DNA of 64,000 nucleotides from Marinobacter salarius. Lineage in GTDB: Bacteria > Pseudomonadota > Gammaproteobacteria > Pseudomonadales > Oleiphilaceae. The stretch's first letter is position 1. Each line of letters opens with the position of its first letter. Positions 27,865 to 64,000 of this stretch are shown piece after piece. The stretch spans positions 4,278,001-4,342,000 of the forward strand of contig CP007152.1 in NCBI GenBank assembly GCA_000831005.1, given 5' to 3'. The notes under the pieces were generated by a model. It saw only the letters and a list, made by a program, of their open reading frames with translations, made no database searches and was not told the origin of the DNA. The translations under genes and the position numbers were made by a program.

Positions 27865-28517
27865 CGCAGCCAACGGGCCGGTGACCGGGTCATGGCCAGC
27901 ATCACCCACTATCTGGAAACGCACCTGCGCCTGACGATAAACACGGCGAAGAGCGCCGTGGATCGCCCTTGGCGTCGGAGCTTCCTGGGTTACAGCGTGA
28001 GCTGGCACAAAAGGCAGGTACGATTGAGGATCGCCCCCAAGAGCCTGAGGGCTTATCTGGCCAAGCTGCGCCCTCTGCTTAGACGGTCACGGGGGCAGTC
28101 GTTGACAACGACTATTCGGAAGCTGAACCCGGTGCTGCGAGGTTGGGCGAATTATTACCGCCTGACCGACACAAAGCGCTCGGTAGAAGCTCTGGATGGT
28201 TGGATAAGGCGGCGACTCCGTCTGATTCTGTGGCAGCAATGGAAGCGGACCCGCACGCGGGCTCGCAACTTGATGCGGCTGGGTCTGACTGAACCGAGAG
28301 CCTGGCAGAGTGCAACGAATGGGCGTGGACCCTGGTGGAATAGCGGCGCTTCGCACATGAACGCCGCCTTACCTAAAAAGGGTATTCGACCGCCTGTCTC
28401 TGGTAAGCTTGCTGGATACGATGGCCCGGCTTCAGAGTCAGCCATGAACCGCCGTATACGGAACCGTATGTACGGTGGTGTGAGAGGACGGGGGAGGTGA
28501 CTCCCCCTCCTACTCGA
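27865..28517 (+). mobile_element. Group II intron, 3' fragment (RT thumb/maturase plus domains V-VI)
   Basis: The coding part begins inside the reverse transcriptase (RSQRAGDRVMASITHYLE, then AKSAVDRPWRRSFLGYSVSW) and runs through the maturase region (LNPVLRGWANYYRLTD) to a stop at 28500. RNA domain V is visible: ACCGCCGTA paired with TACGGTGGT around an ATACG-GAAC-CGTAT tip. A GGGGGAG/CTCCCCC stem and the 3' end CTACTCGAT follow. The 5' domains and most of the RT are missing, so it cannot move by itself. It lies between the cupin leader and the CYTH gene. Confidence 0.85.
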
Positions 28518-28554
28518 TTATGCTGAAATCAGAATTCACACGGCAGGAGGGCGG

Positions 28555-29413: not shown

Positions 29414-30591
29414 TTACGGCTGATCGGCCGCTTTGGAGACGTTGCTGTCCTCTTGAGTGGCCTGTTTTTGAAGGTTGTGCCATTTGTTAATGAAGTCGCG
29501 ATAATGGGACAGGGCTTCTTTCACCACTTCCACGTCCGGGGTCTCACTGGACTTCACAAGAACGATCAGGCCCTTGCCTTCAATTTCCTTATCGGTGGGC
29601 GGGTGGCAAACGACTTCGTTGTTGTCGTCAATATAGCGAGTGCGGTGCCGATGCCATGCCGAATCAGCGCGCTGACGATATCCGCCCAATTCAGGTCGTC
29701 CAGTTCAATTTCGTAGCGGTGGGGGTGGTCGTGTTGATAATTGAACAAGTCCTCAAGGACTTTCTCTGACCCCGGTGCGATGACCGAGCGCACCATGATC
29801 TCCGGATAGGTTCGAACCGGTCGGATAACGGTACGGACACCCGCAGAAGTAAAGCGATCCCGATTTTCATCCCGTACGCACTCCACCGTGACTTTCTGGC
29901 CAAGGTTGGACTCACTCAGCCTGTGGGCAATATCAAAGGTCAGGCTGTCGGAGGTCGGGTCGGATTCGTCAGCGGCTAATACAACAATATGTCGGGCTGA
30001 ACCAGCGTGCACCGCCTTGAGAGCTTCCGGGTCACTACCGGAGCCATGAAAGTGAACCAGGCCATTGTCCGCCAGTTCGGGCGGAAGCCCGTTGGGAAAC
30101 TGACTGGTCAATATGATGATGGGAACGGTTTCATAACCGGGCACGGCCCGCATTTGGGAGGCAAAGCGAGAAAAATACTGTTCTCCGCCCGTCTGCGGTG
30201 TGTTGACGATAACGATGTGGTCTTTCATGGCGTATATCCAGCGTCCGGTTAAGATACGTTCCCGGCGGTAGAACCGGTATTCAATATAATCACTGACGAT
30301 AAGCGTTAACAGCGTGATGGCGGCAATGAACATCAGCAAAACGGTGCTGAGTCGTCCGATGATGGTCTGCGGCGCAAAATCACCGTAGCCCACGGTAACC
30401 AGCGTTGTCATGGTCATCCACGCAGACTCGAACAGCGTGAGGTCCTCTGCCGCCCATATGATCACCACCTGAGTGACCAGCAGCCCGCCAAGAATGGTGA
30501 AAAGCCGCTTGATGCGTGACCGGATAATCCCGGACATAGGCAGGTGGGAAAGCTGATGTTCCGGGTTCAGCGGCCGGCGATTCCTCTGCAT
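29414..30591 (-). CDS. Two-TM potassium channel with TrkA-N domain (apparent frameshift)
   Basis: About 392 aa after repair. Two membrane helices flank a pore loop with selectivity filter TLVTVGYGD (residues ~65-75), followed by a cytoplasmic RCK/TrkA-N-like domain ([16 protein letters not shown]). The frame breaks at ~29640; adding one C ([13 protein letters not shown]) restores the C-terminus. It resembles MthK-type ligand-gated channels. Divergent from glnE. Confidence 0.9.
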
Positions 30592-30672
30592 CGGTGTCCT
30601 TACAACGGTTCTGTCGGGGGAGAGTTCGTTATACAGTACGGGAAATATAACAGAGACACAGGGGTTTGCATT

Positions 30673-33578
30673 ATGTCCGAGCCGTGGCGCTCCTTACCGA
30701 AGAGTCTGGCAGATGAGGTTGGCGGTGCCTGGTCTTCGGTATTTTCCGAGGGCATGCCCAGTTTTCTGGGCACTCAGGGTGGCGTATCCGATGAGGATGT
30801 GGCCCAGGCCGTCGCTCGCAGCCCTTTTGTCAGGCGCACCCTTGAGCGCCATCTGGAACAGGTAGCGGCACTATGTCACTCGCGCCCGCTGACTGAGCGC
30901 ACAACCGCGGATTACCTGCGCCAGCGCTGGCAGGAATTCCTGTCAGACGTGGTTGATGAAGGCAGTCTCCACGCGTCGTTGCGGCAATTCCGGACGGAAA
31001 TACAGTTCCGGATTATCTGGCGGGACCTGATGCGCTGGGCAGACCTTGCCGAAACCATGGCGGCCACAAGTGATTTCGCCGACACCTGTATCCAGGGTGC
31101 CCTGGACTGGTTGTACGAAGACACCTGCGAGCAATCAGGAACGCCGTGGGGAGTAAATCCGGCGACGGGAAAGGAAGGCCCGCAACCCTTGATTGTTCTG
31201 GGTATGGGGAAGTTGGGGGGGCACGAGCTTAACGTCTCTTCTGATATTGATCTCATCTTCGCGTTCCCGGGGAAGGGCGAAACCCGTGGCGGGCGCCGAT
31301 CCATTGATAACCAGCAGTTTTTTATCCGCCTGGGCCAGAGGCTGATCCAGGCGCTGGACCAGATCACCGCAGACGGCTTTGTGTTCCGCGTGGATATGCG
31401 CCTGCGCCCCTATGGCCAGAGTGGGGCCTTGGTGCTGAGTTTCGCTGCGCTGGAGACCTATTACCAGGACCAGGGGCGGGACTGGGAGCGCTATGCCATG
31501 GTAAAGGCGCGGGTTGTGGCCGGTGATCAGCAGGCGGGGCAAGTGCTGATGGATAGCCTGAAGCCCTTTGTCTATCGCAAGTATATCGACTTCAGTGCGT
31601 TTGAGTCCCTGCGTGCCATGAAGTCCATGATCAGCCGGGAAGTACGCCGTAAAGGCTGGAAAACAACATCAAGCTCGGCAATGGAGGCATCCGCGAGATT
31701 GAATTTGTGGTACAGGCGTTCCAGTTGATCCGGGGCGGCCGTGACAGGGAATTACAACAGCGGGAACTATTGGTAATCCTGAAGGAGCTGGAAGAACTGG
31801 AGCTGCTGCCGTCACCGGTGGTAAAGGAGCTGAAGGAGGCCTATGTCTTCCTTCGCAATCTTGAGCATGCCCTTCAGGGCATGGAAGACAAACAGACCCA
31901 ACTGCTGCCGGAAGACGATCTCTCGCAAGCCCGTGTAGCACTGATCATGGGGTTTGATGATTGGCCAGCCTGCGTTGCGGAACTGGAAAAACATCGCGAA
32001 CGGGTGGCCACGCATTTTGCAGATATCATCGCCATCGAAGATGAAGAACACGAGGTGGCGGCGCTTGATGAAGGCTGGCAGGAACTTTGGCTGGGTGAAA
32101 TGGACGAGGAGGCGGCGACCGCCTGGCTCGATGAACATGGTTTTGAGGACGCCGAAGGCAGCTATGCTGCCCTCAGCGACCTGCGCGAAACCCGCACATT
32201 GCAGACGCTGCAGACCCAAGGGCGACAGCGGTTAAACAAGTTCATACCGGTATTGTTGGAAGCGCTTACTCACGTGGAGGGGCCGTCCCAGACGCTGGTG
32301 CGGGTTCTTCAACTGGTTGAAGCGATTCTGCGCAGAACCGCCTACATGGTGTTGCTGTTGGAGAATCCGGGAGCCAGGACCCAGCTGGTCCGCCTGTGCA
32401 GTGAAAGCCCTTGGATCGCAAGCCAACTGGCGGAAACGCCCTTGCTGCTCGACGAGCTTTTGAACGCAGAGAGTCTGTACAGCCCGCCGGCAAAAACCGA
32501 ACTTCAGGATGACCTGCGCCAGCAGATGCTGCGGATTCCCTATGAGGATCTTGAGGAGCAGATGGAGACTCTGCGGCACTTCAAGAAAGCCCACATACTG
32601 CGAGTGGCCGCCTCGGAGATACGGGAAACCCTGCCATTGATGAAGGTCAGTGACTATCTGACGTGGATTGCCGAAGTGGTGCTGGACCATGTGGTGGACG
32701 TGGCGTTCGCTAACCTGGTCAGCCGCCATGGTTACCCCCGGCGCAAGGATGGCTCAGCCTGTGACACCGATTTTGCCGTCGTTGGCTATGGCAAGTTGGG
32801 GGGTATCGAGCTTGGCTACACCTCGGACCTCGACCTGGTCTTTATCCACGATGCCGATCCGGAGCAGTCAACGGATGGTGACAAGCCCATCGACAACGCC
32901 GTTTTCTACACCCGGCTCGGGCAGCGAATTGTGCACATTCTCAACACCCAGACGCCGTCCGGCCAGCTTTACGAAGTGGATATGCGCCTGCGACCCTCGG
33001 GCAGCTCGGGGTTGTTGGTCAGTACGCTGCCCGCCTTCGAGAAGTACCAGCGTAGCGATGCCTGGACCTGGGAACACCAAGCGCTGGCCCGCGCCCGTGG
33101 TGTGGCAGGCTGTCCGGAAACGTTGGAAGCCTTTGAAAAGCTACGTGCAGACATCCTGTGTCAGCAAAGGGATCGGGGAAAGCTGAGGGAAGAAGTGGTC
33201 GGCATGCGAGAGAAGATGCGCACCGCCCTGGGCACCCCGCAAATCGAAGGCAAGGTGCCTGAGGTTTTCCATATCAAACACGACTACGGCGGCATTATCG
33301 ATATCGAGTTCATGGTGCAGTACCTGATGCTGGCCTGGTGTTCCGAGCATCCGGAACTGACGCAGTGGTCCGATAATATTCGCCAGATGGAGGAACTGGG
33401 CCGGGCGGGGGTATTGCCGGTGGAAGACACTGAAAAACTCAGGGAAACGTTTATCACCCTGCGCTCCACCATACACCGGCGGGCACTGCAGAACCTGAAT
33501 AGCCAGGTGGCGGGTGATGCGTTTCCCGAAGAGCGTGATTACATCCAAAGTATGTGGAATCGGGTTATGTTGGGGTGA
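30673..33578 (+). CDS. glnE: Glutamine synthetase adenylyltransferase/deadenylase (apparent frameshift)
   Basis: Bifunctional enzyme that switches glutamine synthetase activity in response to PII. Both nucleotidyltransferase domains are present: [21 protein letters not shown] in the first half and [20 protein letters not shown] in the second. The frame breaks at ~31656; adding one C ([21 protein letters not shown]) gives ~968 aa, normal for GlnE. A core gene of nitrogen control, so the break is almost certainly a sequence error. Start [15 protein letters not shown] is chosen over the upstream in-frame start. Confidence 0.95.
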
Positions 33579-51328: not shown

Positions 51329-51709
51329 ATGGATGAAACCGGAACGCAAGTCACAGAGACTCAGGCAATGCGTGAGTCGGTGCTGACAATGGCTGTAGAG
51401 GCTTGGCGATTTGGAAGGGTCTTCGATCGATTACTAGGACGTCTTGATGCCGGCGAGACCAAGCGCTACAGGAATCAATTTAACTGGTTCATGAGGAAAG
51501 TCGATGAGTCTTTAACTCAAGCCGGCCTTCGCATTGTGAATGTAGAGGGTCAGTCATTTGATCCTGGCATGGCCGCAACTCCGCTCAACATCGAAGAGTT
51601 CGACGCCTCTGATACGCTAGTAGTGGATCAAATGCTGGAGCCCATCATCATGGGTGATGAAGGAATTGTGAGAACGGGAACAGTGACGTTAAGGATCGCA
51701 GAACAATGA
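51329..51709 (+). CDS. GrpE-like small protein of the Hsp70 operon
   Basis: 126 aa. The N-terminal half is helical (MAVEAWRFGRVFDRLLGRLDAGETKRYRNQFNWFMRKVDESL). The C-terminal GMAATPLNIEEFDASDTLVVDQMLEPIIMGDEGIVRTGTVTLRIAE resembles the GrpE beta-domain, where GrpE has vVeel..Gy...grviRpa.V.v. It overlaps the Hsp70 gene by 4 nt (ATGA). A dedicated nucleotide-exchange factor for that Hsp70 is inferred; identity to GrpE is weak. Confidence 0.7.
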   Translation: MDETGTQVTETQAMRESVLTMAVEAWRFGRVFDRLLGRLDAGETKRYRNQFNWFMRKVDESLTQAGLRIVNVEGQSFDPGMAATPLNIEEFDASDTLVVDQMLEPIIMGDEGIVRTGTVTLRIAEQ

Positions 51710-54201
51710 AGCACTTTGTAGGAATTGACCTGGGTACCACCAACAGCGCGATATGTTCATACGATGGCACGGACACGCGAATCTGGAAAAGTCCGGAGCA
51801 GAACGACGTCACTCCCTCAGTCATCTATATTGATCGTCGCGGAAACAAGTACGTAGGCAAGAGGGCGTACGATTCCGCACCCCACAGCCCGAAGAATTCA
51901 GCAATGCTTTTCAAACGATTGATGGGGACAAGCACTCCCGTCGAACTACCGGCAGTCAATCTTACGAAAACTCCCGAGGAGTGTTCTGCGGAAGTCCTCA
52001 AAGCGCTTTATGGCTACTTGCCGGAAGAGGTCAGGAGCGATCCTGACACGGGAACAGTAATAACAGTCCCCGCCGCCTTCAACCAAATGCAAAGAGACGC
52101 GACCATGCAGGCTGCGAACATGGCTGGCATTGGTAATGTCGCTTTGATGCAAGAGCCTGTCGCGGCAGTAATGAGTGTTATGCGAGCCCGTAACGTTGAT
52201 GGGATGTTTCTCATATACGACTTGGGCGGTGGTACGTTGGATATTGCGGTAGCTGAGAGCATGGGCGGCCGAATCAACTTGCACGCCCATGGGGGTATCT
52301 CTATGTGCGGCGGGCGAGATTTTGATCGTATGTTGCTTGGTAACGTTGTAAAGCCCTGGTTGATGGAAAATTTTAACTTACCAGAGAACTTTTCGACTGA
52401 TTCGGAATTTGAGCCACTCATTAGGTTGGCGGCGTGGGCCGCAGAACGAGCCAAGATTGAGCTATCAGCGAGTGAGGAGGCAGTAATAAGTCTGACGGAA
52501 GTAGAAGCCAGAGCCCGTGATCTTGATGGTGAAGAGATTTACTTGGATATCCCGCTAACTCGGCAGACTATGGATGGGTTAATTGCCGATAGGCTTTCAG
52601 AAACTATCGACGCTGCGCGAGATACATTGGCAAAAGCCAGCTTGAGCCCCCACGATCTCGAGCGAATAGTATTTGTGGGTGGTCCCACCAACTATAAGCC
52701 ACTTCGAGATAAGGTTGCATTTGAACTCGGAATCCCTGCCAACACAGACGTTAACCCAATGACAGCTGTTGCAGAGGGAGCGAGTATTTTCGCTGAGTCG
52801 ATCGATTGGAGTACGCAGAGGAGAAGTCGAAAGGGGAACCGGGGAACGCTATCAAATACTGGCAGTCTAGATATTTCGTTCAACTACATTTCTCGAACAC
52901 CAGACGTCAATGCAAAACTTGCTGTAAAGATACCGGGCGAAATTCCAGAGGGCGCAGAATTCCAAATCGATAGCGCAGACACAGGCTGGACATCAGGGCG
53001 TGTTCCTCTGGCCAATGGCGCGACATTAACTTTGAGCCTATCAAAGTCAGGTGAGAACAAATTCACCGTTTCAGTGTTTGATGGGAGTGGTGGGAAAATT
53101 CCACTCTCTCAAGACTCGATTATTATCACACGAACCGCTGCCACAGTTGATGCGATCCCCGCTTCGCATTCAATTGCGATAGAGGTGTTGAACAAATTGG
53201 GAGGGCGTCCTGAACCCGATTATTTGGTTCGGGCAGGAGATCATCTTCCGGCCAAAGGAAAGCGGGTCTACAAAGCGGGTGAGTCTCTGAAGGCGGGAGC
53301 ATCAGGGTCGTTGAATTTCATCCTCTGGGAGGGTGAAATTGGGGATCCTATTCGTGACAATCGTCCCGTCGGTTCGTTAAAGATTTCTGGTAGTGATTTT
53401 GACGAAGGCGTCATTCCCGCTGGTGCTGATCTTGAGTGTGAGTATGAGATTCTCGACTCCGGGAACATTGTATTTAACGTATCAATCCCGGCGATTGGAG
53501 GTACTTTCCATTCAGACCGAAGCTTTTACTCCCCGCAAGAAGGCATGCATGACTATTCGGCGTCTGCCGACTCTATTGTCCAGGAAGGCGAAAGAACGCT
53601 CTCTCGCGTTGACGATTTTAGCTCAAAGATTGACGATCCTAGGCTAACGAAGGCTAGTGAAAAACTGCGTTCAGTGAATAATCTGGATGAAAACTCTGAC
53701 CCTGAGTCTACCAAGCAGGCGATGGAAAATATCCTGGACGCAAAGCGTCTGATTGCTGATGTTAAAAAATCACATCTTAAGGAAACGAGAGCCATTGAAC
53801 TCGAGAACGTTGTAGAGTTCTTCAACACTTATATTCGTGAGCATGCCCGTCCATCCGAAGCCTCTGCATTTGACGCTCTGGTCCATACGGCACGTACTGC
53901 AATTCAGGATAACGACACCAGCTTTGACCACCACCTTGATGAACTGAAAGGAAAGAACTTTGAGATTCTGTGGCGTCAGGATTGGTTCGTTGTGGATAAA
54001 TTCAAGTCTATGGCTCAGGCCCCTCAAGAATTTACAGATCAACAGAAATATACTCAGTTGGTGCAGGCTGGGGTAGAGGCAATGAAGAACGACGATATTC
54101 AGCGGCTTCGGACTGTCATCGCCGAGCTTGCCCAGATACAAGTCGGCATGGCTACAGGTGATGAACTATTTGATGTTGCAAACATTATTAAGGGCCACTG
54201 A
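51706..54201 (+). CDS. Divergent Hsp70-family chaperone
   Basis: 831 aa, longer than DnaK (~640). The nucleotide-binding domain is intact: GIDLGTTNSAICSYDG (phosphate 1), VPAAFNQMQRDATMQAANMAG, DLGGGTLDIAVAESM (phosphate 2) and VFVGGPTNYKPLRDKV (adenosine). The substrate domain diverges strongly from DnaK and a ~250-residue helical C-terminal extension follows. It overlaps the next gene by 1 nt (TGATG). It is not the housekeeping dnaK, as neither grpE proper nor dnaJ is adjacent. Gene order suggests a dedicated chaperone machine. Confidence 0.93.
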   Translation: MKHFVGIDLGTTNSAICSYDGTDTRIWKSPEQNDVTPSVIYIDRRGNKYVGKRAYDSAPHSPKNSAMLFKRLMGTSTPVELPAVNLTKTPEECSAEVLKALYGYLPEEVRSDPDTGTVITVPAAFNQMQRDATMQAANMAGIGNVALMQEPVAAVMSVMRARNVDGMFLIYDLGGGTLDIAVAESMGGRINLHAHGGISMCGGRDFDRMLLGNVVKPWLMENFNLPENFSTDSEFEPLIRLAAWAAERAKIELSASEEAVISLTEVEARARDLDGEEIYLDIPLTRQTMDGLIADRLSETIDAARDTLAKASLSPHDLERIVFVGGPTNYKPLRDKVAFELGIPANTDVNPMTAVAEGASIFAESIDWSTQRRSRKGNRGTLSNTGSLDISFNYISRTPDVNAKLAVKIPGEIPEGAEFQIDSADTGWTSGRVPLANGATLTLSLSKSGENKFTVSVFDGSGGKIPLSQDSIIITRTAATVDAIPASHSIAIEVLNKLGGRPEPDYLVRAGDHLPAKGKRVYKAGESLKAGASGSLNFILWEGEIGDPIRDNRPVGSLKISGSDFDEGVIPAGADLECEYEILDSGNIVFNVSIPAIGGTFHSDRSFYSPQEGMHDYSASADSIVQEGERTLSRVDDFSSKIDDPRLTKASEKLRSVNNLDENSDPESTKQAMENILDAKRLIADVKKSHLKETRAIELENVVEFFNTYIREHARPSEASAFDALVHTARTAIQDNDTSFDHHLDELKGKNFEILWRQDWFVVDKFKSMAQAPQEFTDQQKYTQLVQAGVEAMKNDDIQRLRTVIAELAQIQVGMATGDELFDVANIIKGH

Positions 54202-55691
54202 TGTCTACTGATCAGTGGCTTCCCAATGGCGCTGATTTGGGAACGGATTTTAAACTTCGTTCCTTACTGCAATCCGGCGACGGGTGGCAAATCTTTCGAA
54301 CGAAAGGACGCAGCCTTGTTCTAGTTGTAGAAGCTGCTCTTGTGGATTGGTGGTGTAGTTTGGCGCTGATTGAAAAAGATTTGTTCAGTGCGCTGAGCAT
54401 TGGCGGGAAAGATTTTTTTTATCTTTCCTCTGGGGCGGACGCTACTATCGAACCGGTGTCTGCTGGAGGGGGGCCACAGACAAAAGCAGACGCCCTCAGC
54501 TTCGTTGATGCATGGAAGGAAACCAGAAAGCGCCTTCCAGATGGATCGCTGCAAAACTCCTTGTTTATTGAACGATATTCTCGTCTGTTGCCTCTGACTT
54601 CTGAAGGTTCAGAGATTCCAGACGATGAGGTACTCGGTAGATGGCTTACCGGCGGTGTTAACGTGTCCGTATCTTCATTCCGACGCATCCACGCTCTTTG
54701 TGGATGGATGTCGGTAAGGGACTTAATTGACGTTGTTAGATCTGCCGGGTTCGAAGTACCGCCAGGTTCCGAACTTTTGGATAAGCCCGCGGCTCTCGGT
54801 TCGTCAAATGCGTGTTTACTGGGCAAGGATGAAAATAAGCGAAATGATGGTGGGATAGAAGATCCTCTCGTGCCCGAAATAAACGGCAATGCAGATATTC
54901 AGAGATCGTTCAATCTTCCCGGGCGCGAAGCACTCGAGGATTTTTTCAACGAGCACGTTGTGGACATCATTTTCAATCCTGAGCGCTACCGAACAATGGG
55001 AATTGATTTTCCCTCCGCCATTATTCTTCATGGGCCCCCAGGGTGCGGGAAAACCTTTGCCGTGGATCGTCTGGTTGAGTTCATTGGCTGGCCCAGCTAT
55101 GCGATAGATTCTAACAGTGTGGGGAGCCCTTACATTCACGAGACGAGCAAAAAGATATCTGAGGTATTCGACAAGGCTTTGGATAACGCTCCCTCGGTCG
55201 TTGTGATCGATGAGATGGAGGCATTTCTTACTGACCGACGCTCTGGAAGTAGCTCTGGTCTTCATCATGTCGAGGAAGTAGCTGAGTTTCTAAGGCGGAT
55301 TCCAGAGGCGATCAGTAACCGGGTGTTAGTTATTGGCATGACCAACATGATTGACATGATTGATCCGGCAATACTCAGGCGTGGGCGGTTTGATCACGTA
55401 ATTGAGGTCGGTATGCCTTCGGTCGACGAAATCAGGTCGTTATTAGGCTCGTTGCTTTCTGGCATCCCTCTGTCACGAGAACTTGCGGTTGAAAGCTTTG
55501 TGAAGGCGCTCGTCGGGAGGCCCCTTTCCGATGCAGCATTCTTTGTCCGAGAAGCCGCTCGGATAACCGCAAAAAATGGCAAGGCACAAATGGATGACGA
55601 AAGTCTGGAAGCGGCTTTCGCCAGCTTACCTCAGGAAAAAGGGTCGCGCTCGACGAGTATCGGTTTTGTTTGGGGGGAGGAAAAGGATTAA
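54201..55691 (+). CDS. AAA+ ATPase of the Hsp70 operon
   Basis: 496 aa. The N-terminal ~220 residues match nothing I recognise. The C-terminal half is an FtsH/Vps4-like AAA module: Walker A ILHGPPGCGKTFA (~275-287), Walker B VVVIDEMEAFL (~332-342), and the arginine-finger region IDPAILRRGRFDHVI (~385-400). It is likely a remodelling ATPase working with the Hsp70 encoded just upstream. No protease or membrane segment is seen. Confidence 0.92.
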   Translation: MSTDQWLPNGADLGTDFKLRSLLQSGDGWQIFRTKGRSLVLVVEAALVDWWCSLALIEKDLFSALSIGGKDFFYLSSGADATIEPVSAGGGPQTKADALSFVDAWKETRKRLPDGSLQNSLFIERYSRLLPLTSEGSEIPDDEVLGRWLTGGVNVSVSSFRRIHALCGWMSVRDLIDVVRSAGFEVPPGSELLDKPAALGSSNACLLGKDENKRNDGGIEDPLVPEINGNADIQRSFNLPGREALEDFFNEHVVDIIFNPERYRTMGIDFPSAIILHGPPGCGKTFAVDRLVEFIGWPSYAIDSNSVGSPYIHETSKKISEVFDKALDNAPSVVVIDEMEAFLTDRRSGSSSGLHHVEEVAEFLRRIPEAISNRVLVIGMTNMIDMIDPAILRRGRFDHVIEVGMPSVDEIRSLLGSLLSGIPLSRELAVESFVKALVGRPLSDAAFFVREAARITAKNGKAQMDDESLEAAFASLPQEKGSRSTSIGFVWGEEKD

Positions 55692-55693
55692 AT

Positions 55694-57339
55694 ATGGACT
55701 TATTTGATAATCCTTTTAAAGCGCTTGGCGCAACACCCAGAGATGACCGCCGCCGAATCATGGAGTTGGCGGATGAGGGCGCTTTATTGCTAGACCCCCA
55801 AGAATGTTCTGAGGCCCGCTCTATTCTTACGATGCCGAGAAAGCGCTTGGAAGCGGAGTTAGCCTGGCTGCCCGGGCTTGGACCCAAAAAAGCTTCAGAG
55901 GTACTGGCGGCCGTTGAGAGCAAACCCAACGATCTTTTCTCTTTGGAGGGTATTCTTCCGATCGCCCGTTGTAACGCAGTCGGTGCTGCGTTAGCTCGAT
56001 CCAATCTTACGGAACCTCGCGCTGTATCTGACTGGCTACTCGAGCTTGGTTGGGCGTTTGAAGATGTAGAGCCCGAATCACTTCGTCGCGTCATTAATGA
56101 AGAACGTGTCGTTTCGGGCTTCGCAGAAATCACTGATCTTTCTATTGTTGAATCAGGAATTGCGGAAAGAAGGCGCTACTACCGTCAGGTAATGAAAAGT
56201 GCTTTGGGCAAGATGGAGTCCCTTGATCTTGTGACAGCCATTACTTTGACAGTAGAGAAAGCAACTGAACTTGGCGAGGTTTCGGGGCCAAAACTGCTTG
56301 CTGATCTTGTCGAATCATTTGAGGTCGAAGCTCAAGAGTTTTTGGAGCGGGAAGGGGAAAATATCAATCTTCTGATAAGCCGAGTAGAGGAAGCTCTCGA
56401 CCTTGAACTGGCAGACGCTGACCTGGAGCCCATAATTGAGCGGCTCTGTCAGGTTACACGGAACTGGGATCTCGTTGCCCAGCCGATTCAGGTGGTTCAA
56501 AAAAGCCGTGGCCTGCCTCATGAGGCCAGTCAGGACATAGCTTATTCTGTGCGAGCCCTCGCCGTTACGCTGAATAATGATTTTGCAAAACTTGAATTGG
56601 CCAAAAAGCTTACTGAGATGCTTCGAGAGGTCTTCGCTGAGGTGGTCGATGTTGCAGATAGAGTTGCTGAGGATGCAGGAGCCCTCGATGATCTTGCGGA
56701 GCAACGGGAGAGACTGGTTGAAGATGCTGCGCGACAAGAGGAAGAGTGGCAAAGAGAAATCACCTATGAGGCCGAAGTTGGGCTCTGTTCAAAAATAAGC
56801 TCCGAATTTCACCAGAGGGTATCGAGTGGAAAGGAAGGCGCATTCCTCTTGATGATGTAACCGGGGTTCGCTGGGGAGGAATCAGTCGTTCAGTTAATGG
56901 CATCCCCTCAGGAACTACCTATACCATCATGATCTTTAGCAAATCTCAGAGTATGGACATTGAACTGAAAAATCAGGCTATTTACTCGAGCTTGGTCGAT
57001 CGTTTATGGCGGTCTGTAGGTGTTCGGCTCTTGACCGAATTTCTCGATAGTCTCCGAACTGGGCAGAAATTCCGGTTTGGTCCACTGGTAGTAAGTGACT
57101 TTGGCGTGGAATTAACCAGGCGGGGAATATTGTCGAAAGGGAGCGCTCAGTTTTGCAAATGGGACGAGCTTTTGACCGGGACCGCTGACGGAGCTTTCCA
57201 TATTGGCCATAAAGACGATGAAAAATTGGCGGCAGGCTTGTCGTATCTTGACGTCAATAACGTTCATATTCTTCAGGGAGCGATGAGCATCTTGTGGAAA
57301 AGCGGGGGCGAGCGACTTAGCAGTATCTTGAACTCATGA
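55694..57339 (+). CDS. Degenerate J-domain/PH-like protein (apparent frameshift)
   Basis: About 548 aa after repair. The N-terminus FDNPFKALGATPRDDRRRIMELADEGALLLD...EARSILTMPRKRLEAEL has the layout of a J-domain (first two helices and DPxKR-type end) but no HPD motif. A long helical middle follows. The C-terminus LFKNKLRISPEGIEWKGRRIPLDDVTGVRWGG looks like a PH-type domain. The frame breaks at ~56783; adding one G (EVG-ALFKNKLRI) joins both parts. It may be the Hsp70 partner or adaptor. The ATG lies 2 nt after the ATPase stop. Confidence 0.72.
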
Positions 57340-57358
57340 GTCAGAAGGTGAAGTAACG

Positions 57359-58378
57359 ATGGCTGCCGGCAGGAAGGGAAGCAGAGGTTTTTCAGGGTTA
57401 GTGGATCTTGTTTCTGATCTAAGTGATCTAAGGCCGCTTGATGAATTGCAGAAGCAAGAAATAACCGAAACGCCGCCTGACACGCAGATAAGTGAGCGGG
57501 AGCCGAAGAGTAATCAGAATCAGACCCCTGCTAGGACCTCATCTGAAAGCTCGGCTGGCATGGGTGGAGATACACAGTTTGTGCTTTGGACCTTGGCAAT
57601 CGTTTTTTTGGTGATTCTCTACGCGGGATCCCAGAGTTCTGACCAAGAGTCTTCGATTTACTCAGCTGATTCTGACGCCAGCACCAATTCAGGCTATGAG
57701 GGAGCAGGAAACAATAACGACATTGAATCTGACTTCTCGGACTTATCTTCTGACGATTTAAATTCTGACTCTACGGTAGAAACTCAATTGGCAGCTTCAA
57801 ATGGCTCCGAACCAAGTCGCTATGATGATGTATTGCTGCAATACATAAAGCCTTCGGTGGGTACCAATAACGTCCTTTCTATCGCTGAGATTCGTTGGTG
57901 TGTGAGGGGGGGCATGGAAATCGAAGCGATGCGGGGTGTATTCAGTTCAAACGACGGCGTAGACAAGTTCAATGCGATTGTTGATGACTACAACCGCCGT
58001 TGTGGAAGTTACAGGTATCGGGAGGGAAATCTGGGACTTGCGCAGCGTCAAGTTGAGGAGTGGAGGGTTGCAATAGAAAATGAAGCAAAGGACAAAGCAC
58101 GACAAATGGATCAGATTGCTTCTACGTCGACCACTGCTCCGTCATCGTCTCTCTCTGGAGATACCGGTCCCAGCAAAGCCATGGTTAAAGAAGTGCAGAT
58201 GTTGTTGAGAGTGCTTAGATTTGGTCCTGGCGTAGCGGATGGAATTATGGGGCCAAGAACTGAAGAAGCAGTAAGAGCGTTTCAGCGCTCAAAAGGAATG
58301 CACGCGACCGGTCAAATCAATTCGTTTTTATTACAAGATCTGAGACAAGAATATAGGAGGAAGTACCCCTCGCAATAA
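57359..58378 (+). CDS. Single-pass membrane protein with C-terminal peptidoglycan-binding domain
   Basis: 339 aa. A cytoplasmic N-terminus (~75 residues), one membrane helix (FVLWTLAIVFLVILYAG), a long Ser/Asp-rich linker, a middle domain with two cysteines (IRWCVRGG, YNRRCGSYRYREGN), and a PG_binding_1-like end (VKEVQMLLRVLRFGPGVADGIMGPRTEEAVRAFQRSKGM). This places the end of the chaperone operon at the cell envelope. GAAGGTG ribosome site; last gene of the five-gene operon. Confidence 0.85.
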   Translation: MAAGRKGSRGFSGLVDLVSDLSDLRPLDELQKQEITETPPDTQISEREPKSNQNQTPARTSSESSAGMGGDTQFVLWTLAIVFLVILYAGSQSSDQESSIYSADSDASTNSGYEGAGNNNDIESDFSDLSSDDLNSDSTVETQLAASNGSEPSRYDDVLLQYIKPSVGTNNVLSIAEIRWCVRGGMEIEAMRGVFSSNDGVDKFNAIVDDYNRRCGSYRYREGNLGLAQRQVEEWRVAIENEAKDKARQMDQIASTSTTAPSSSLSGDTGPSKAMVKEVQMLLRVLRFGPGVADGIMGPRTEEAVRAFQRSKGMHATGQINSFLLQDLRQEYRRKYPSQ

Positions 58379-58425
58379 GACCTACTTCCCTCTGGCTTAC
58401 CCGTTTTCAACTTATTAACGTTCAG

Positions 58426-58503
58426 GAGCCGGATTTTTCCAACTCTGGGTGGACCTAATACGGGGTCAGGGTCAATGAGCCGGGTTTCTCAACTCTGGGT
58501 GGA
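58426..58503 (+). repeat. Imperfect ~27-bp direct repeat
   Basis: GAGCCGGATTTTTCC-AACTCTGGGTGGA (58426-58453) and GAGCCGGGTTTCTC-AACTCTGGGTGGA (58477-58503), with CGGGGTCAGGGTC between them. Looks like duplicated end sequence of a small mobile or REP-like element at the border between the two accessory modules. Confidence 0.65.
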
Positions 58504-58591
58504 TTACCGAACTAACGACCATTAAGTGCCAGAATTTTTAGAGAAACCGAAAGCATTCTTTTTTCGGCGGAGGAGATAACAGGAGGAACTA

Positions 58592-59209
58592 TTGGACGTG
58601 GATATTTTCAACAAATTTAATAGAAAGGATATACAAGATCGTCAGATCGACACACTGATAGGTCTAAGCAAAGGAGTTTCAGCTGACGGCAATGTAAATC
58701 AAGCTGAAGCTGAGTTCTTGATGAGTTGGCTTGTTCAGAGTAGGCAATCCACCGATAACCCCATTATCATTAATTTGCTCCAAAGAGTCTCAGCAATGCT
58801 CGAGGACGGAGTTCTGGATCGCGAAGAATCCGTCGAGCTACTAGAGATCCTTCAGAAGATCTCGGGCGACACTTCTGAGATTGGTGAATTAGCCAAAACG
58901 TCTTCATTACCCGTTAATGACCCCTTGCCTGAGATCGAATTTAACGGAAGTTCTTTCCTTTTCACGGGAACATGCGCGTTTGGAACCAGGAAGCAATGCC
59001 ATGAAGCAACGGAGTCGCTCGGCGGGACCATTGCGAAGGGTGTTAATAAAAATCTGAACTACCTTGTTCTCGGCACTTATGTGACGGACAGTTGGGCCCA
59101 TGAAACTTTTGGTCGGAAAATTGAGAAAGCAATCGAGTATAGAGAGAAGGGCTTACCCGTTGTGATCCTTACTGAGGAGCATTGGCTTTGCTCTGGCGGG
59201 TTGGGCTGA
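58592..59209 (+). CDS. TerB-like plus BRCT-domain protein
   Basis: 205 aa. Residues ~15-95 form a TerB-like helical domain (DTLIGLSKGVSADGNVNQAEAEFLMSWL, AMLEDGVLDREESVELLEIL). Residues ~110-205 are a BRCT domain (SSFLFTGTCAFGTRKQCHEATESLGGTIAKGVNKNLNYLVLG, ending in the conserved Trp of EEHWL). BRCT domains bind DNA ends or partner proteins. The start is a TTG 5 nt after AGGAGG. It converges on the helicase operon, which also encodes TerB domains. Confidence 0.88.
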   Translation: MDVDIFNKFNRKDIQDRQIDTLIGLSKGVSADGNVNQAEAEFLMSWLVQSRQSTDNPIIINLLQRVSAMLEDGVLDREESVELLEILQKISGDTSEIGELAKTSSLPVNDPLPEIEFNGSSFLFTGTCAFGTRKQCHEATESLGGTIAKGVNKNLNYLVLGTYVTDSWAHETFGRKIEKAIEYREKGLPVVILTEEHWLCSGGLG

Positions 59210-59223
59210 GCATTCCTGCCCCA

Positions 59224-61419
59224 TTATTCGAGTGCGGTCAGTAGCCAATCTTCCGTGCCATCGACATCAAACATACGTCGCCCAAAACCCTCCGTAAGCA
59301 AATCCTCGGGTAATAGCTCATCAAATTTTTCTATATGTTTCTCCGGTACTGTTTCCGCAAGCTCCGAATCGGAGGGCAAACCGGAGTGGAGCACACTCCT
59401 CAGAGAGCTGATGACTGAATCGGAAGTGGTCTTTTGCACTTCAATTACTCCCGCGAAATGACTGGCACGGAACCCCTTCATCAGAAGAATAGCGGAGAGG
59501 GTGTTCACGATCTTATCTCCGCGCCACGGAAATATATAGGCGTGGCCCTCTTGCTCAATCACAGACCTTTTCCGAAGCTCAGCGCGCTCAAAAAACTCGA
59601 CGCCCTCCCGAAACAACTCCTTTGCCTCTGTGTCTGCATAATCGACCATCCCACTGGCAGTGCTGATTCGATAGTCACCAGATTTATAAATGGAGAGCAT
59701 TTCCTTTCTGACAAGGTCATGGATACCCAGGCCTTCACCGCCAAATTTAGGAGGTTTGCCCCCCTTTGTTTTTTCGACGTAGATAACTTTACTATCCGTA
59801 TCGACATCGATGACCTTCCAGCGTCTACCGGCAAAAATAATGTGTTGATTGGGGAGAATCATAGCGTCGACGGGCAGCTGACCGATTGTCTTTGCACCAT
59901 TTACCACCCGGAACTCATCAGGAGTCTTGAACACCGCATAGAAGGTGTATTGGTTTACGAGGCGCTCACCCTCAACACCAAGTACGAGTTCTCCGCTACC
60001 AAGCTGAGTAATACAATCCTTGCCGCCGAGATGGCGCAGAAGTGACATGAATTGTGAAGCAGAAATCTGTTGAAACGGGCCTTGGCGACATAGAAGGGCA
60101 AAAAGTTGATCTGCACGAATTCCTCCCCACTGCGCAACTGTCGCAAGAACCTGGTGAACGAGCGTCGAAAAGTGAAATTGAGTGGTATCCGCCGGCTCGA
60201 ACCATTTATCGGCAATAAGTAGCCGAATCATTGCCATCGACTGGACAAGTTCCATTCGCAACTTATCGTTGGGGCTTGATTCGGCCTTAAGTTCGTTTTC
60301 AGCAATCAGCATTCTCAGAATGGCGGGGCCGCCTCTTCTTCCTGAGCGGCCCATACGTTGACGCAAACTTGATACAGAGTGGGGAGCTGTCACTTGTATC
60401 ACCGAGTTCACCTTCCCAATATCGATCCCTAGCTCCAAGGTCATTGTGCAAATCGCAGTGGTGGGCAAGGTATCTTTCTGTAGGCGAGACTCGAGCCCTT
60501 CTCGAAGTTCTCTAGACAAAGACCCGTGATGCGGAAAGAACTCATTTGGAACTACAGCGCTTTCGGAGAAGTCGCTTAGTCGAGCTGCGATGGCTTCTGT
60601 TCGTTGTCGACTGTTCGCAAAAACCAAGTGAGAGCCGCCTCTGCAAAGAGTGTAAAGTTCCTCACAGATTCGGTATTCCGCAGGCGTCCGAGGATCGTTT
60701 GGCTTAAGGTCGATCGGATCACGATATCCCTTAACCTGCATTTTGAGCGTTGCCTGGCTCTGAGAATTAGTAATCGTGACACAGGACATAGTGCCATTCG
60801 GGCGCAAGGAAGCCGGAACAGATTCCAGGTTTCCGAGAGTCGCACTAAGGGCAACCCTTGGAATTGGATTTCCCATACGACCAAGCATGTGTTCCAAACG
60901 ATTGAGCAGGGATAAAAGCTGCTGGCCGCGCTCAGTGCCGATGAACGCGTGAAATTCGTCGATTACAATATATTGCGTGTGAGCGAAAGCCTGGCGACAC
61001 CATCCAGCATGCTTAATAAGCATTGCTTCCAAAGATTCGGGCGTGATCAAAAGGATGCCAGAAGGAGTCTTCCGAGCACGATTCTTCAAACCTTGCGGAG
61101 CGTCTCCATGCCAAGGGGTGACGGGCATTTCCATCATATCGCAAAGGATGTCCAAACGACGGTACTGATCGTTAATCAACGCTTTAAGTGGACTCAGGTA
61201 GAGGATGCCGAAGCCCTCTTCTTGATTCGCTACGGCTGTCATAGCGGGCAGGAAGAACGCCTCCGTTTTACCCGCTGCGGTTGTAGCGCTGATCAGGACA
61301 TCTGTATTTCCGGACAGAACTGGGTCAACGGCCTTTTTTTGGATCTCTCTCAGATCGGGCCAGCCTTGTTTGAAGATCCATTTCTGAATTCGTCTGTCCA
61401 GTTTCTGATATTCGTCCAT
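59224..61419 (-). CDS. Lhr-like superfamily 2 DExH helicase
   Basis: 731 aa. Motif I ATTAAGKTE (~45-53), motif II VIDEFHAF (DEFH, 154-157), motif III ALSATLGN, motif VI RMGRSGRRGGP, then an Lhr-type winged helix and beta region (VDAMILPNQHIIFAGRRWKVIDVD). Shorter than full-length Lhr (~1500 aa), close to Lhr-core size. The start overlaps the upstream ATPase stop by 1 nt. Probably unwinds or remodels DNA as part of a defence or repair module. Confidence 0.93.
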   Translation of the reverse strand: MDEYQKLDRRIQKWIFKQGWPDLREIQKKAVDPVLSGNTDVLISATTAAGKTEAFFLPAMTAVANQEEGFGILYLSPLKALINDQYRRLDILCDMMEMPVTPWHGDAPQGLKNRARKTPSGILLITPESLEAMLIKHAGWCRQAFAHTQYIVIDEFHAFIGTERGQQLLSLLNRLEHMLGRMGNPIPRVALSATLGNLESVPASLRPNGTMSCVTITNSQSQATLKMQVKGYRDPIDLKPNDPRTPAEYRICEELYTLCRGGSHLVFANSRQRTEAIAARLSDFSESAVVPNEFFPHHGSLSRELREGLESRLQKDTLPTTAICTMTLELGIDIGKVNSVIQVTAPHSVSSLRQRMGRSGRRGGPAILRMLIAENELKAESSPNDKLRMELVQSMAMIRLLIADKWFEPADTTQFHFSTLVHQVLATVAQWGGIRADQLFALLCRQGPFQQISASQFMSLLRHLGGKDCITQLGSGELVLGVEGERLVNQYTFYAVFKTPDEFRVVNGAKTIGQLPVDAMILPNQHIIFAGRRWKVIDVDTDSKVIYVEKTKGGKPPKFGGEGLGIHDLVRKEMLSIYKSGDYRISTASGMVDYADTEAKELFREGVEFFERAELRKRSVIEQEGHAYIFPWRGDKIVNTLSAILLMKGFRASHFAGVIEVQKTTSDSVISSLRSVLHSGLPSDSELAETVPEKHIEKFDELLPEDLLTEGFGRRMFDVDGTEDWLLTALE

Positions 61420-62761
61420 TAAATTTTGAATCCGGCAAGTCCATCATCATTTGACGGAGGATCCTGCGAATCCTGAGCCCCTTCATTCACATCGATCTCG
61501 GTATCCACATCGCTAGGCAGATCAGGCTCAAGCTCGATATTGGCTACCAGATCCGACCACTGTATCTGTGGGTTCTGGTCCACAATCGACAGCATGTCCA
61601 GGAACGCTTTTATGATGCTTCGTGGTGTCCTGAAGTAAGACTCGCCAATGTTCTGATGACAATGATTCAGAAATGATTCAAGGGCATCGTCCGGAACGAG
61701 ATATTGTTCCTGGTCCCCGCTGGCGAATACATGCCGCAGGTTTCGGAGAAGAATATATAACTCTTCCGGGGTCAGGCTTGCGAGATGCAGGGCAGGGGAT
61801 GAATAGTCTGTCACACCGGCTCGCTGAGCGAAGCTGTTTTCAGCTAGCTCGATTGAAGAGCTTCATAACTATAGAGTCCTTTTCGTGGATCCAAAAGGAA
61901 CTCGGGCGTGCCCCCGAGCAGAAAGCCGAGCCCCTCAACAGAGCCCTGCAAGCAATCATTAAGCATCCTGAGAATTTGCTCGTAGTTCGAAGTTCGAGCT
62001 TGGGTAGAATTTAATTTGTAGAGATTAACCATCTCATCGAGGTTCACCAAGAGCCCGCTATATCCAGCCTGCTGAACGAACAGGCCCATCAATTTAAGCG
62101 AGTCATAGAAACTGGAGTCATCAATGATTGTTCGGACGCCAAGATCACGGCGGGCATCCGTTTTGGTGGAGTACTCACCTCTCAACCATCGAATAGCATT
62201 TGTCTTTAAATCATCGTTACCCTGTTCATGGCCGTTCCAATACGCTTCGACAACAGACGCAAAATCATAACCACCAACCATTTCAGAAAGTTTCGCCAGC
62301 TTCTCATGAATTACGTCATTCACTGACTCATTCTTAGCGGATGCCTCTTTTCGAGCTTGCGTGACGAAGCGCTCGACAACGCTTGTCAGAGCGTTCCCAT
62401 CAGGCTTGTTTCGGGTCGACATGTTCCGCATGAGTTCCGAATATAAGTTGCGTGCCTGGCCCGATGACGCATGGATTCGCCGATCTGGTGACAGATCAGC
62501 GTTCACCGACACCATTTTCCGTTCCAAGGCGATGCTTCGCACAACACTTAGGAAAAAGGTCTTGCCTGAGCCGTACTCCCCAATGATTAAACGAAAAGCG
62601 GAACCGCCATCAGTAACTCGCTCAATATCGCGGTACAGAGCCTTTATTTCGTTTACTCGCCCGACTTGAATATGCTGGATTCCGACCTTTGGCGTTACCC
62701 CTGATTTGAGCGATTGGATAATCGAATCTCGTTCCTTGGGCCTGATACGTTTATCACTCAT
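61419..62761 (-). CDS. BREX-type ATP-binding protein, DUF2791 (apparent frameshift)
   Basis: About 447 aa after repair. Walker A LIIGEYGSGKTFFL (~60-73) and a Walker B-like LLVNLDEMVNLY; the C-terminal part has LASLTPEELYILLRNLRHVFA and YFRTPRSIIKAFLDML, typical of DUF2791/BREX-system ATP-binding proteins. The frame breaks at ~61852; adding one base (EALQS-x-LAENSFAQRAG) joins the parts. It lies between the TerB protein and helicase genes. No other BREX genes (pglX, pglZ, brxL) are seen. Confidence 0.9.
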
Positions 62762-62767
62762 GAGCAA

Positions 62768-64000
62768 TTATTCCTTAACGGTTTGTTCGATGTCTTCGGC
62801 CACATCAAGCATGACGTAAATGTCGCCATCGTCTTCCAGAACTGGTTCATCCAATACCTCAAACGACCAATCGTTGATCGTCTCAAGGGCTCCGTCCACC
62901 ATCAGCCCTAGCCCATTGCACATCGACTCAAGTTCTGTGCGGCTCCATTTCTCTTGGGTGATCAGTTTCTCAAACAGCTTTCGATGCGCTGGATCCAGTC
63001 CGTGATCATCATCCACAGGCAAATCCTCTTTTGCGGATTCCGGCTCAGTTACCGTTGATTCCTCCTCATCAGACTCTGTAAAAATGGAGCCGAGAATGCT
63101 CTGCACATCCTTTGTCTCTGATTCATGCAGCGCCAAAACACTCGCATTAAGCTCGAAGCCGACAGCTTTTGGAGAAGTGAAAGCGGCTGGGCTCTCCGGC
63201 GCTCTAGCGGTTGTTAAGCCATGAATATCACTGGAGACCAATGCCTTATCCAACCCAAGGCTAGTGTAGAGTTTTTCCATCTGCCTAATTTCATCCGGAC
63301 TGATTCTGCCGTCCGCCAGAGCGACACTGACCAGAATCTTACTAATACCGTGTTTCCCATCCTGACTAAGATTCTCAATCTGCTTCTTCAAACTGGCGGT
63401 GTTCTGCGGTGAACTCAGCCGCCAGGTGAGGTAAGCATGTAGGCTTGCTTTAGCCGGTTCCGTTAGCCCCGGACGGTTATTAATGAGATTCTCTAAAACA
63501 CTAACCTCGGCCTCATGCACGTGATCATCGATTTTCGCAACCATGGCACCGAGTCTAAGGGCCATGCCCACCTCATTAAATGTGTCACTGGGTTCTTCTA
63601 ACTGTTTATGGCCACCAGAAAACAAAACCACGTTACCAGTAGGTTGAGGCTTGGCATGATGAAAGCGTGGGTCTGGGGCTATGCCGAAACCCGTTCTGTC
63701 CAGAACACCTTGTAAAACCTCAACCTCCTTTTTGTTTACCTTCTCGGCTGGCGTGTCGGATAGCTGCGCCCAAAGCTCCTGGAAGGACACCAAACCTTTG
63801 TTGTCAGCTATGACCCTTTCTGACCAATCTGAGAATGATGATAGGAGATCGGAGTTGGATGAGTCTGATATCTCCTCAGGTAGTAGGAGCACGGCCTCAA
63901 TATCATCCCGAGAGTTTCCCTCCTTTCCCAAATAACGACTGTATGAGTCGAGCTTTTCGGAGGCCTGTTCCGCAACTTTTATAAGCTTATTCGCCACGGA
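62768..64000 (-). CDS. TerB/TerB-C domain protein, 5' end outside window
   Basis: At least 410 residues; the frame is open to the window edge. A TerB domain lies around FNEVGMALRLGAMVAKIDDHVHEAEVSVLENLI...ILVSVALADGRISPDEIRQMEKLY. An acidic linker follows, then a TerB-C-like domain (DPAHRKLFEKLITQEKWSRTELESMCNGLGLMVDGALETINDW). TerB domains bind metal and act as hubs in Ter stress/defence systems. The ATPase gene begins 6 nt after its stop. Confidence 0.88.
   Translation of the reverse strand, partial: SVANKLIKVAEQASEKLDSYSRYLGKEGNSRDDIEAVLLLPEEISDSSNSDLLSSFSDWSERVIADNKGLVSFQELWAQLSDTPAEKVNKKEVEVLQGVLDRTGFGIAPDPRFHHAKPQPTGNVVLFSGGHKQLEEPSDTFNEVGMALRLGAMVAKIDDHVHEAEVSVLENLINNRPGLTEPAKASLHAYLTWRLSSPQNTASLKKQIENLSQDGKHGISKILVSVALADGRISPDEIRQMEKLYTSLGLDKALVSSDIHGLTTARAPESPAAFTSPKAVGFELNASVLALHESETKDVQSILGSIFTESDEEESTVTEPESAKEDLPVDDDHGLDPAHRKLFEKLITQEKWSRTELESMCNGLGLMVDGALETINDWSFEVLDEPVLEDDGDIYVMLDVAEDIEQTVKE

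What the first reader, a model, noticed from the sequence alone, without database searches (positions are those of the whole stretch)
51329..58378. Five-gene envelope-anchored Hsp70/AAA+ chaperone operon of unknown function
Seen: GrpE-like, Hsp70 (831 aa), AAA+ ATPase, a protein with a J-like start lacking HPD plus a PH-like end, and a single-pass membrane protein with a peptidoglycan-binding domain, joined by 4-, 1- and 2-nt junctions. Known: Hsp70 needs a J-protein and an exchange factor, and AAA+ unfoldases cooperate with it. Inferred: a self-contained disaggregase or sensor machine tethered to the envelope, possibly a stress or anti-phage system. I know no characterised system with this exact set.
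Basis: partly seen in the sequence, partly recalled or inferred. Interest (0 to 1): 0.85.

Follow-up and report, generated by a model that had tools for sequence, protein, structure and literature searches.

The report
Envelope-tethered Hsp70/AAA defence-island operon
A five-gene set found in distantly related bacteria encodes a private Hsp70 chaperone with its recharging partner, a ring-type unfolding ATPase and a cell-wall anchor; it often lies beside known anti-virus genes and looks like an uncharacterised envelope-based immune or stress machine.

Summary
The operon is real and conserved: 44 of 56 related loci with enough downstream sequence keep all five parts. It is rare (3 of 398 phylum genomes, own included) and lies on plasmids, in Tn7-like elements and beside known defence genes. 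The small protein folds like GrpE. The Hsp70 keeps its ATPase motifs but lacks the usual linker. The fourth protein has a PH-like end and no HPD (0 of 70); a J-domain is not shown. Its frame is broken near 56.8 kb in this assembly; an intact copy exists in G017. Further findings: an I-G-F tail on 62 of 66 AAA proteins; an N-terminal GF[AST]GL tag on anchors and other genes of these loci; repeated exchange of the J-like C-terminal module; a natural J-like/anchor fusion. Best reading: an envelope-tethered, Hsp70-fed unfoldase with a defence role. Shown: architecture, GrpE fold, conservation, defence-rich context. Inferred: contacts, clients, anti-phage function.

The parts
51329..51709 (+). GrpE-like nucleotide-exchange factor, 126 aa
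   Evidence: AF2 pLDDT 92.7; Foldseek ranks 1-12 all GrpE/GrpEL1, best E 1.1e-4, only that one below 1e-3; VIA top 7 all GrpE, Z 6.8-9.1, 100-121 residues; hhalign vs 30 canonical GrpE E 3.7e-6, prob 87%
51706..54201 (+). Hsp70, 831 aa
   Evidence: Pfam HSP70 2.1e-55; 74-row alignment
51718..52797 (+). Hsp70 nucleotide-binding domain (residues 5-364), ATP motifs kept
   Evidence: alignment to DnaK; conservation
52801..53145 (+). Conserved stretch in place of the interdomain linker, beta-rich by eye (approximate limits)
   Evidence: no family shared by members
53158..53535 (+). Possible diverged substrate-binding beta domain (approximate limits)
   Evidence: C-terminal profile vs yeast mitochondrial Hsp70 fragment E 0.012; hhalign vs DnaK SBD E 0.021, prob 2%, reversed control E 0.13: weak
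54201..55691 (+). AAA ATPase, Cdc48/VCP-like core, 496 aa
   Evidence: PF00004 4.2e-27; profile best hits VCP-like ATPases; Walker A/B and RRGRFD motifs invariant in 31
55659..55667 (+). I-G-F tripeptide near the AAA C-terminus
   Evidence: [ILV]G[FL] in the last 12 residues of 62 of 66 AAA
55694..57339 (+). J/PH-like scaffold gene; frame broken near 56.80 kb in this assembly
   Evidence: intact homologue L005:10119-11765
55694..55861 (+). N-terminal J-like helical region without HPD
   Evidence: AF2 helices 7-11, 19-32, 35-46, 48-56 of the L026 homologue; HPD 0 of 70
56803..57339 (+). C-terminal PH-like module (open in the shifted frame)
   Evidence: homologue residues 355-441 match ICAP1 Z 9.3, 81 residues, rmsd 2.2; merlin/radixin, SSRP1, Rtt106 Z 8.0-8.2
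57359..58378 (+). Single-pass membrane anchor with peptidoglycan-binding domain, 339 aa
   Evidence: PG_binding_1 2.4e-11 at residues 274-322
57386..57418 (+). N-terminal GFSGLVDLVSD tag
   Evidence: tag in 52 of 60 anchors and 20 other genes of the loci; 0 of 292 control genes
57575..57634 (+). Transmembrane segment (approximate, read from the sequence)
   Evidence: hydropathy scan gives one TM in 42 of 52 tagged anchors of other loci
57851..58066 (+). Conserved two-cysteine domain after the TM
   Evidence: C181, C215 invariant in 41 anchors
58178..58324 (+). PG_binding_1 domain
59224..61419 (-). Neighbouring Shango SngC helicase (context, not part of the operon)
   Evidence: PADLOC SngC 3.7e-269; SngB split 61419/61844 and TerB_C protein 62768-63997

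Best explanation
A mobile, envelope-tethered chaperone machine with a conflict (most likely anti-phage) role. The anchor and the J/PH-like scaffold form a transmembrane unit: the periplasmic part holds peptidoglycan and carries a variable tail, the cytosolic part carries an exchangeable C-terminal module. The scaffold recruits the private Hsp70; the GrpE-like protein recharges it; Hsp70 hands clients to the Cdc48-like AAA ring, which pulls on proteins at the inner membrane, probably those bearing the shared GF[AST]GL N-terminal tag or phage proteins bound to them. Shown: gene set, predicted folds of the GrpE-like and PH-like parts, intact ATPase motifs, membrane and cell-wall domains, co-divergence, tag, tail, defence-rich context. 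Inferred: every contact between the parts, client transfer, tag recognition, phage as trigger.
For: Five parts kept in 44 of 56 loci; GrpE fold; pairwise identities of GrpE, Hsp70, AAA, J N-part and anchor core rise and fall together (Spearman 0.73-0.90 between proteins) while the J C-module does not follow (0.23-0.39); J-like part + TM + anchor domains in one Aminobacter protein beside diverged GrpE-like and Hsp70 genes; tag. Context: Shango beside the window operon and a SngC homologue in L065, Zorya and BREX-2, next gene after tnsE in Tn7-like elements, rdrB of RADAR and a partial dptF in E. coli HeN100. PADLOC models hit at <=1e-15: 226, 93 and 170 in batches of 93, 89 and 77 neighbour proteins vs 18 in 93 control proteins. 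Rare: 3 of 58, 8 of 369 and 3 of 398 genomes, own genome counted each time.
Against: No phage data. No nuclease or toxin family in the five proteins (Pfam), so the effector step is unexplained. J-domain not shown. The control for the defence count is 16 regions at round coordinates of 4 genomes, mostly core genome, so island bias is not removed; only family tallies, not per-protein counts, were available, and the control also has weak hits (HEC-05, ShosA, BrxH, DpdF). Pairwise values are not independent, near-copies remain among the loci, and aligning unlike C-modules lowers their correlation by itself. Of 56 loci 7 lack AAA and 12 lack an anchor at the score used; 18 of the 20 further tagged genes resemble the anchor weakly, so they may be its paralogues. 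Of 92 loci 38 show no tagged gene, many of them cut short.
Confidence: 0.48

Rival explanations
1. A mobile envelope-stress or heat-tolerance machine (proteostasis, not defence) that repairs or extracts inner-membrane proteins and shares islands with defence genes only because both are accessory.
For: The parts are chaperone-like; Cdc48-type AAA proteins extract proteins (recalled); genes that look by eye like metal efflux lie upstream in L028, L029 and L048; presence on plasmids and a transposon.
Against: 0 of 854 neighbour genes in 90 loci match small-Hsp, ClpB, ClpA-type or FtsH seeds, usual parts of heat-tolerance loci (recalled) (seeds from relatives only). Strong PADLOC hits around it.
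Confidence: 0.27
2. A dedicated assembly chaperone for an envelope structure encoded in or near the operon (the tagged membrane proteins being its subunits).
For: Two tagged genes in 18 of 54 tagged loci; further recurrent downstream genes: a 214-aa protein in 16 loci and a second tagged protein in 11.
Against: 36 of 54 tagged loci have one tagged gene only; I recognised no secretion or appendage genes among the recurrent neighbours, by eye.
Confidence: 0.15
3. The AAA works with a protease such as ClpP through its I-G-F tail, so the machine degrades rather than remodels clients.
For: [ILV]G[FL] tail in 62 of 66 AAA; (L/I/V)-G-(F/L) is the ClpP-docking tripeptide of Clp ATPases (PMC8745299, passages read).
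Against: In Clp ATPases the motif sits on a protruding loop (PMC8745299); here it is terminal and the AAA is Cdc48-like. A tail can bind something else. L059 and L088 lack it, L035 has FGF, L073 is cut.
Confidence: 0.12

Closest known systems
DnaK-DnaJ-GrpE with ClpB (bichaperone)
   Same: Hsp70 with ATPase motifs, a GrpE-fold exchange factor, an AAA partner
   Different: No HPD, no usual linker, Cdc48-like AAA, fixed operon with a cell-wall anchor; the host has its own GrpE and J-proteins elsewhere
GAP1-N2 GTPase conflict systems with HSP70/GrpE/DnaJ (Kaur et al. 2020, PMC7159879, passages read)
   Same: HSP70 and GrpE in a predicted conflict system, DnaJ fusion, peptidoglycan-binding membrane parts in the same class
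   Different: No GTPase or FNIII found here; Cdc48-like AAA instead
CoCoNuT type III CnuD Hsp70-like proteins (PMC11090510, passages read)
   Same: Hsp70-like protein inside a predicted defence system
   Different: CnuD sits with McrBC homologues and is predicted there to hydrolyse ATP poorly at best; here no McrBC and intact ATPase motifs
IetAS (IetA ATPase)
   Same: AAA core hits PADLOC IetA 3.5e-24
   Different: NCBIfam IteA score 71 vs cut-off 510; no protease family in the five proteins
bNACHT25, which senses phage through host DnaJ (PMC12169576, abstract and passages read)
   Same: Chaperones as a possible route of infection sensing
   Different: Uses the host's DnaJ; NLR-related protein, not found here

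Membership tests
Canonical Hsp70 chaperone system (DnaK/DnaJ/GrpE) | Hsp70 nucleotide-binding domain with ATPase motifs | tested here: met
Canonical Hsp70 chaperone system (DnaK/DnaJ/GrpE) | GrpE-fold exchange factor | tested here: met
   (predicted structure)
Canonical Hsp70 chaperone system (DnaK/DnaJ/GrpE) | HPD motif in the J-protein | tested here: not met
   HPD in 0 of 70
Canonical Hsp70 chaperone system (DnaK/DnaJ/GrpE) | J-domain fold | tested here: inconclusive
   helix layout similar in the model, by eye; profile comparison weak; fold search dominated by other parts
Canonical Hsp70 chaperone system (DnaK/DnaJ/GrpE) | Hydrophobic interdomain linker directly before the SBD | tested here: not met
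   no linker motif after the NBD in the 74-row alignment; SBD only weakly supported
ClpB/Hsp104 disaggregase | Two AAA modules with ClpB-type D2 | tested here: not met
   one AAA domain, Cdc48/VCP-like; no ClpB D2 match
GAP1-N2 GTPase conflict system | GTPase component | tested here: not met
   no GTPase family in the five proteins
CoCoNuT | McrB-like GTPase with McrC homologue | tested here: not met
   none in the five proteins
IetAS | IetA above curated cut-off, with a protease partner | tested here: not met
   71.1 vs 510 bits; no protease family
Transmissible heat-tolerance locus | Neighbouring small Hsp, ClpB-like ATPase or FtsH (recalled) | tested here: not met
   0 of 854 neighbour genes; seeds from relatives, so very diverged copies could be missed
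Anti-phage defence system | Genomic association with known defence systems | tested here: met
   control limited
Anti-phage defence system | Protection against phage | not testable with these tools
   needs an experiment

The most novel reading that the evidence does not exclude
A membrane-sited immune unfoldase-protease: a cell-wall-anchored receptor with an exchangeable cytosolic module loads tagged or phage membrane proteins through a private Hsp70/GrpE pair into a Cdc48-like ring, which docks on ClpP with its C-terminal I-G-F tail and destroys them. It would be a bacterial counterpart of membrane extraction and degradation by Cdc48, used for defence, with a short N-terminal peptide as its address label.
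Probability: 0.12. Interest if true: 0.92.

Novelty: new variant of a known kind. Interest (0 to 1): 0.74.

Why it matters
Hsp70-containing conflict systems have been predicted (PMC7159879, PMC11090510), but I found no description of an Hsp70 with its own GrpE, a Cdc48-like ATPase and a cell-wall anchor in one conserved mobile operon. It gives a defined, portable set with which to test whether bacteria use Hsp70-driven protein remodelling at the envelope as immunity. The tag, the AAA tail and the exchangeable module make the mechanism directly testable, and one copy lies in an E. coli strain.

Tried and rejected
J-domain: profile comparison of the N-terminal region with 30 canonical J-domains gave prob 3%, 8% with a wider set and 27% for the Aminobacter protein alone; no Pfam DnaJ hit in 10 diverged members. 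'J-like' is kept only as a label. The fold search of the 548-aa model showed no J-protein among the rows listed, which is no evidence against one.

Hsp70 C-terminal half: no Pfam family shared by most members; one of 24 hits a cadherin-like sandwich (1.8e-6), but where in the protein is not shown.

Phages: the J/PH-like protein has no match in 50,697 phage records. Three IMG/VR contigs carry the operon; I did not check that they are viral.

Weak rows: of the 8 of 369 class genomes, G352 is a DNA ligase and G108 and G351 have only a diverged J-like + anchor pair, with no GrpE-like match elsewhere in those genomes at E <= 0.001 (an empty answer with no positive genome in that call).

Promoter and terminator scans were no better than shuffles.

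Literature: nine searches for the system and one on the IGF motif. Only open-licence PMC papers are held; a bioRxiv library was not searched. For DefensePredictor (PMC13092281) and Spacedust (PMC12510874) I searched the main text only for chaperone terms and found none; supplements were not read.

Rows dropped: of 95 mapped loci the duplicates L016, L086, L102 and the partial L021, L023, L024 before the operon count; near-copies such as L028/L029 remain. Neighbour proteins under 300 aa before the PADLOC count (259 of 357 that are 220 aa or longer); control 93 of 141 proteins. In one search the HPD test looked only where a strict motif matched (61 of 70); one search repeats it on all 70.
Full report
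OBSERVATION. The fourth gene, however, is not a single open frame in this sequence: the frame breaks near 56.80 kb. G017 has an intact 548-aa copy. glnE and sngB in the same window are also split, which points to assembly indels, though decay is not excluded.

CONSERVATION. A GrpE-like profile found 102 relatives in genome contigs, of which the best 80 were kept, and 3 IMG/VR contigs. With plasmid and whole-genome copies 95 loci were mapped; six were dropped (three duplicates, three partial), leaving 89, some of them near-copies. Of 56 with at least 8.5 kb downstream, 55 have the Hsp70, 54 the J/PH-like gene, 49 the AAA and 44 the anchor. Orders: GrpE-Hsp70-AAA-anchor-J (29), GrpE-Hsp70-AAA-J-anchor (14), the first with a second anchor (1), without anchor (5), without AAA and anchor (5), GrpE-Hsp70 only (1), GrpE only (1). 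So 44 keep all five. On an Hsp70 tree of 74 rows, the 61 with a known phylum fall in 11 groups; several are MAGs, so single odd placements may be binning errors. The set is accessory, own genome counted each time: 3 of 58 relatives; 8 of 369 class members, one of them a false match and two only a J-like + anchor pair; 3 of 398 phylum members. A nucleotide search of E. coli with the Hsp70 gene found 1 of 5426 genomes; more diverged copies could be missed.

PARTS. GrpE-like: AF2 model pLDDT 92.7. Foldseek ranks 1-12 are all GrpE or GrpEL1, the best at E 1.1e-4 and the others above 1e-3. The seven best VIA rows are GrpE, Z 6.8-9.1 over 100-121 residues, rmsd 4.3-5.3; the next, unrelated row has Z 6.5 over 42 residues. 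Profile comparison with 30 canonical GrpE gives E 3.7e-6, prob 87%. Pfam GrpE is the commonest hit, 43 of 81 members, but at E 0.0026 or worse. The host has its own GrpE elsewhere.

Hsp70: the NBD aligns to DnaK over residues 2-362, and the GIDLGTTNS, K70, EPVAA and DLGGGT motifs stand in the 74-row alignment (their roles are recalled from DnaK). No linker motif follows; instead there is a conserved stretch of about 115 residues, beta-rich by eye. The next stretch resembles the DnaK substrate domain only weakly (E 0.012; E 0.021, prob 2%).

AAA: one Cdc48/VCP-like domain with invariant Walker A, Walker B and RRGRFD motifs in 31, an N-domain without a known family, and an [ILV]G[FL] tail in 62 of 66. 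The tripeptide (L/I/V)-G-(F/L) is what Clp ATPases use to dock on ClpP (PMC8745299, passages read). That is a lead only.

J/PH-like: helical N-part, then a PH-superfold domain (best ICAP1, Z 9.3, 81 residues, rmsd 2.2) and a second beta domain. Purely helical rows score up to Z 11.2 on the middle part. HPD is absent in all 70 members tested. The C-terminal module falls in four BLAST groups (45, 11, 2 and 1 of 59; two members had too short an end); the second-smallest may be a diverged PH-like form. L029 and L031 share 94% of the N-part but belong to different groups. On the Hsp70 tree 57 rows need 11 changes of group, where three would be the least. Four of 11 members of the second group pass a TM scan at this end.

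Anchor: one TM, a two-cysteine domain (C181 and C215 invariant in 41), and a tail that varies from 0 to 494 residues among 36 and in content (PG_binding_1 in 18 of 41, PG_binding_2 in 7, EGF-like in 4, SLT in 1). An N-terminal peptide GF[AST]G[LIM] is present in 52 of 60 anchors and in 20 other genes of these loci; 18 of these resemble the anchor profile weakly, two not at all, and 17 have a predicted TM. Among them are a protein with its TM at the other end (L019:7196-7948) and, in Polaromonas where no anchor reached the score used, a divergent SH3-domain protein (L017:6054-7328). The tag is in 0 of 292 genes of 16 control regions and, of 67 window genes, only in the anchor. A plasmid protein of Aminobacter joins the J-like part, a TM and the anchor's cysteine and peptidoglycan domains in one chain next to diverged GrpE-like and Hsp70 genes. 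This supports a scaffold-anchor unit.

CO-DIVERGENCE. Pairwise identities of the core parts correlate between proteins (Spearman 0.73-0.90), those of the J C-module do not (0.23-0.39). The pairs are not independent, and forcing unlike modules into one alignment lowers the second range by itself; the BLAST groups and the tree are the better evidence of exchange.

CONTEXT. Downstream of the window operon, convergent, is a Shango-type set (SngC 3.7e-269; split SngB; TerB_C protein); L065 (Burkholderia sp.) also has a SngC homologue convergent to the operon. Other copies: Tn7-like elements right after tnsE, Zorya and BREX-2 in Polaromonas, rdrB of RADAR and a partial dptF in E. coli HeN100. PADLOC models at <=1e-15 hit in three neighbour batches: 226 (93 proteins), 93 (89) and 170 (77), against 18 in 93 control proteins. 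Only 25 families per batch are listed; of these 75, 32 have a best E of 1e-100 or less, against 0 of all 18 in the control. The control is limited (four genomes, round coordinates, mostly core genes), and one protein can hit many models.

MECHANISM. See Best explanation. The firm part is the architecture; contacts and function are inferred. The missing effector is the main weakness: either the unfoldase itself is the effector, or a protease such as ClpP is. A heat-tolerance locus is the main rival; its usual neighbours (recalled) were not found, 0 of 854 genes.

KNOWN. Closest printed analogues are Hsp70/GrpE-bearing GAP1-N2 systems (PMC7159879) and CoCoNuT CnuD (PMC11090510); the defining GTPase of neither is in the five proteins. 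No PADLOC 2023 model matches the GrpE-like, Hsp70, J/PH-like or anchor protein; the AAA hits IetA but scores far below NCBI's cut-off. Nine literature searches found no description, within an open-licence library.

Noticed in passing
window 59224-63997: Shango-type set (SngC, split SngB, TerB_C protein) convergent to the operon; a SngC homologue is also convergent to the operon in L065:8229-10496.
   Followed up: partly
window 58592-59209: 205-aa protein with a helical N-part and a BRCT domain (2.1e-5) between the operon and SngC; no homologue at E <= 1e-10 in the other mapped loci.
   Followed up: partly
window 30544-33578: glnE split into two overlapping frames, like sngB and the fourth operon gene: probably an indel-prone assembly.
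   Followed up: partly
window 28447-28518: Group II intron match (Rfam RF00029, E 2.3e-6).
   Followed up: no
window 58420-58510: Two similar short stretches (ccaactctgggtgga and near-copy) about 50 bases apart just after the operon, seen by eye; possibly a mobile-element end.
   Followed up: no
L104:12355-12999 and 15 other loci: A 214-aa protein without a family assigned here follows the operon in 14 loci and the J-like + anchor pair in L023 and L024.
   Followed up: partly
L189:7450-9975: Natural fusion of J-like region, TM and anchor domains on an Aminobacter plasmid.
   Followed up: yes
L070, L073, L075, L106 upstream: A shared upstream protein of about 313 aa, perhaps the WYL-type regulator that PADLOC tallies among neighbours.
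   Followed up: no
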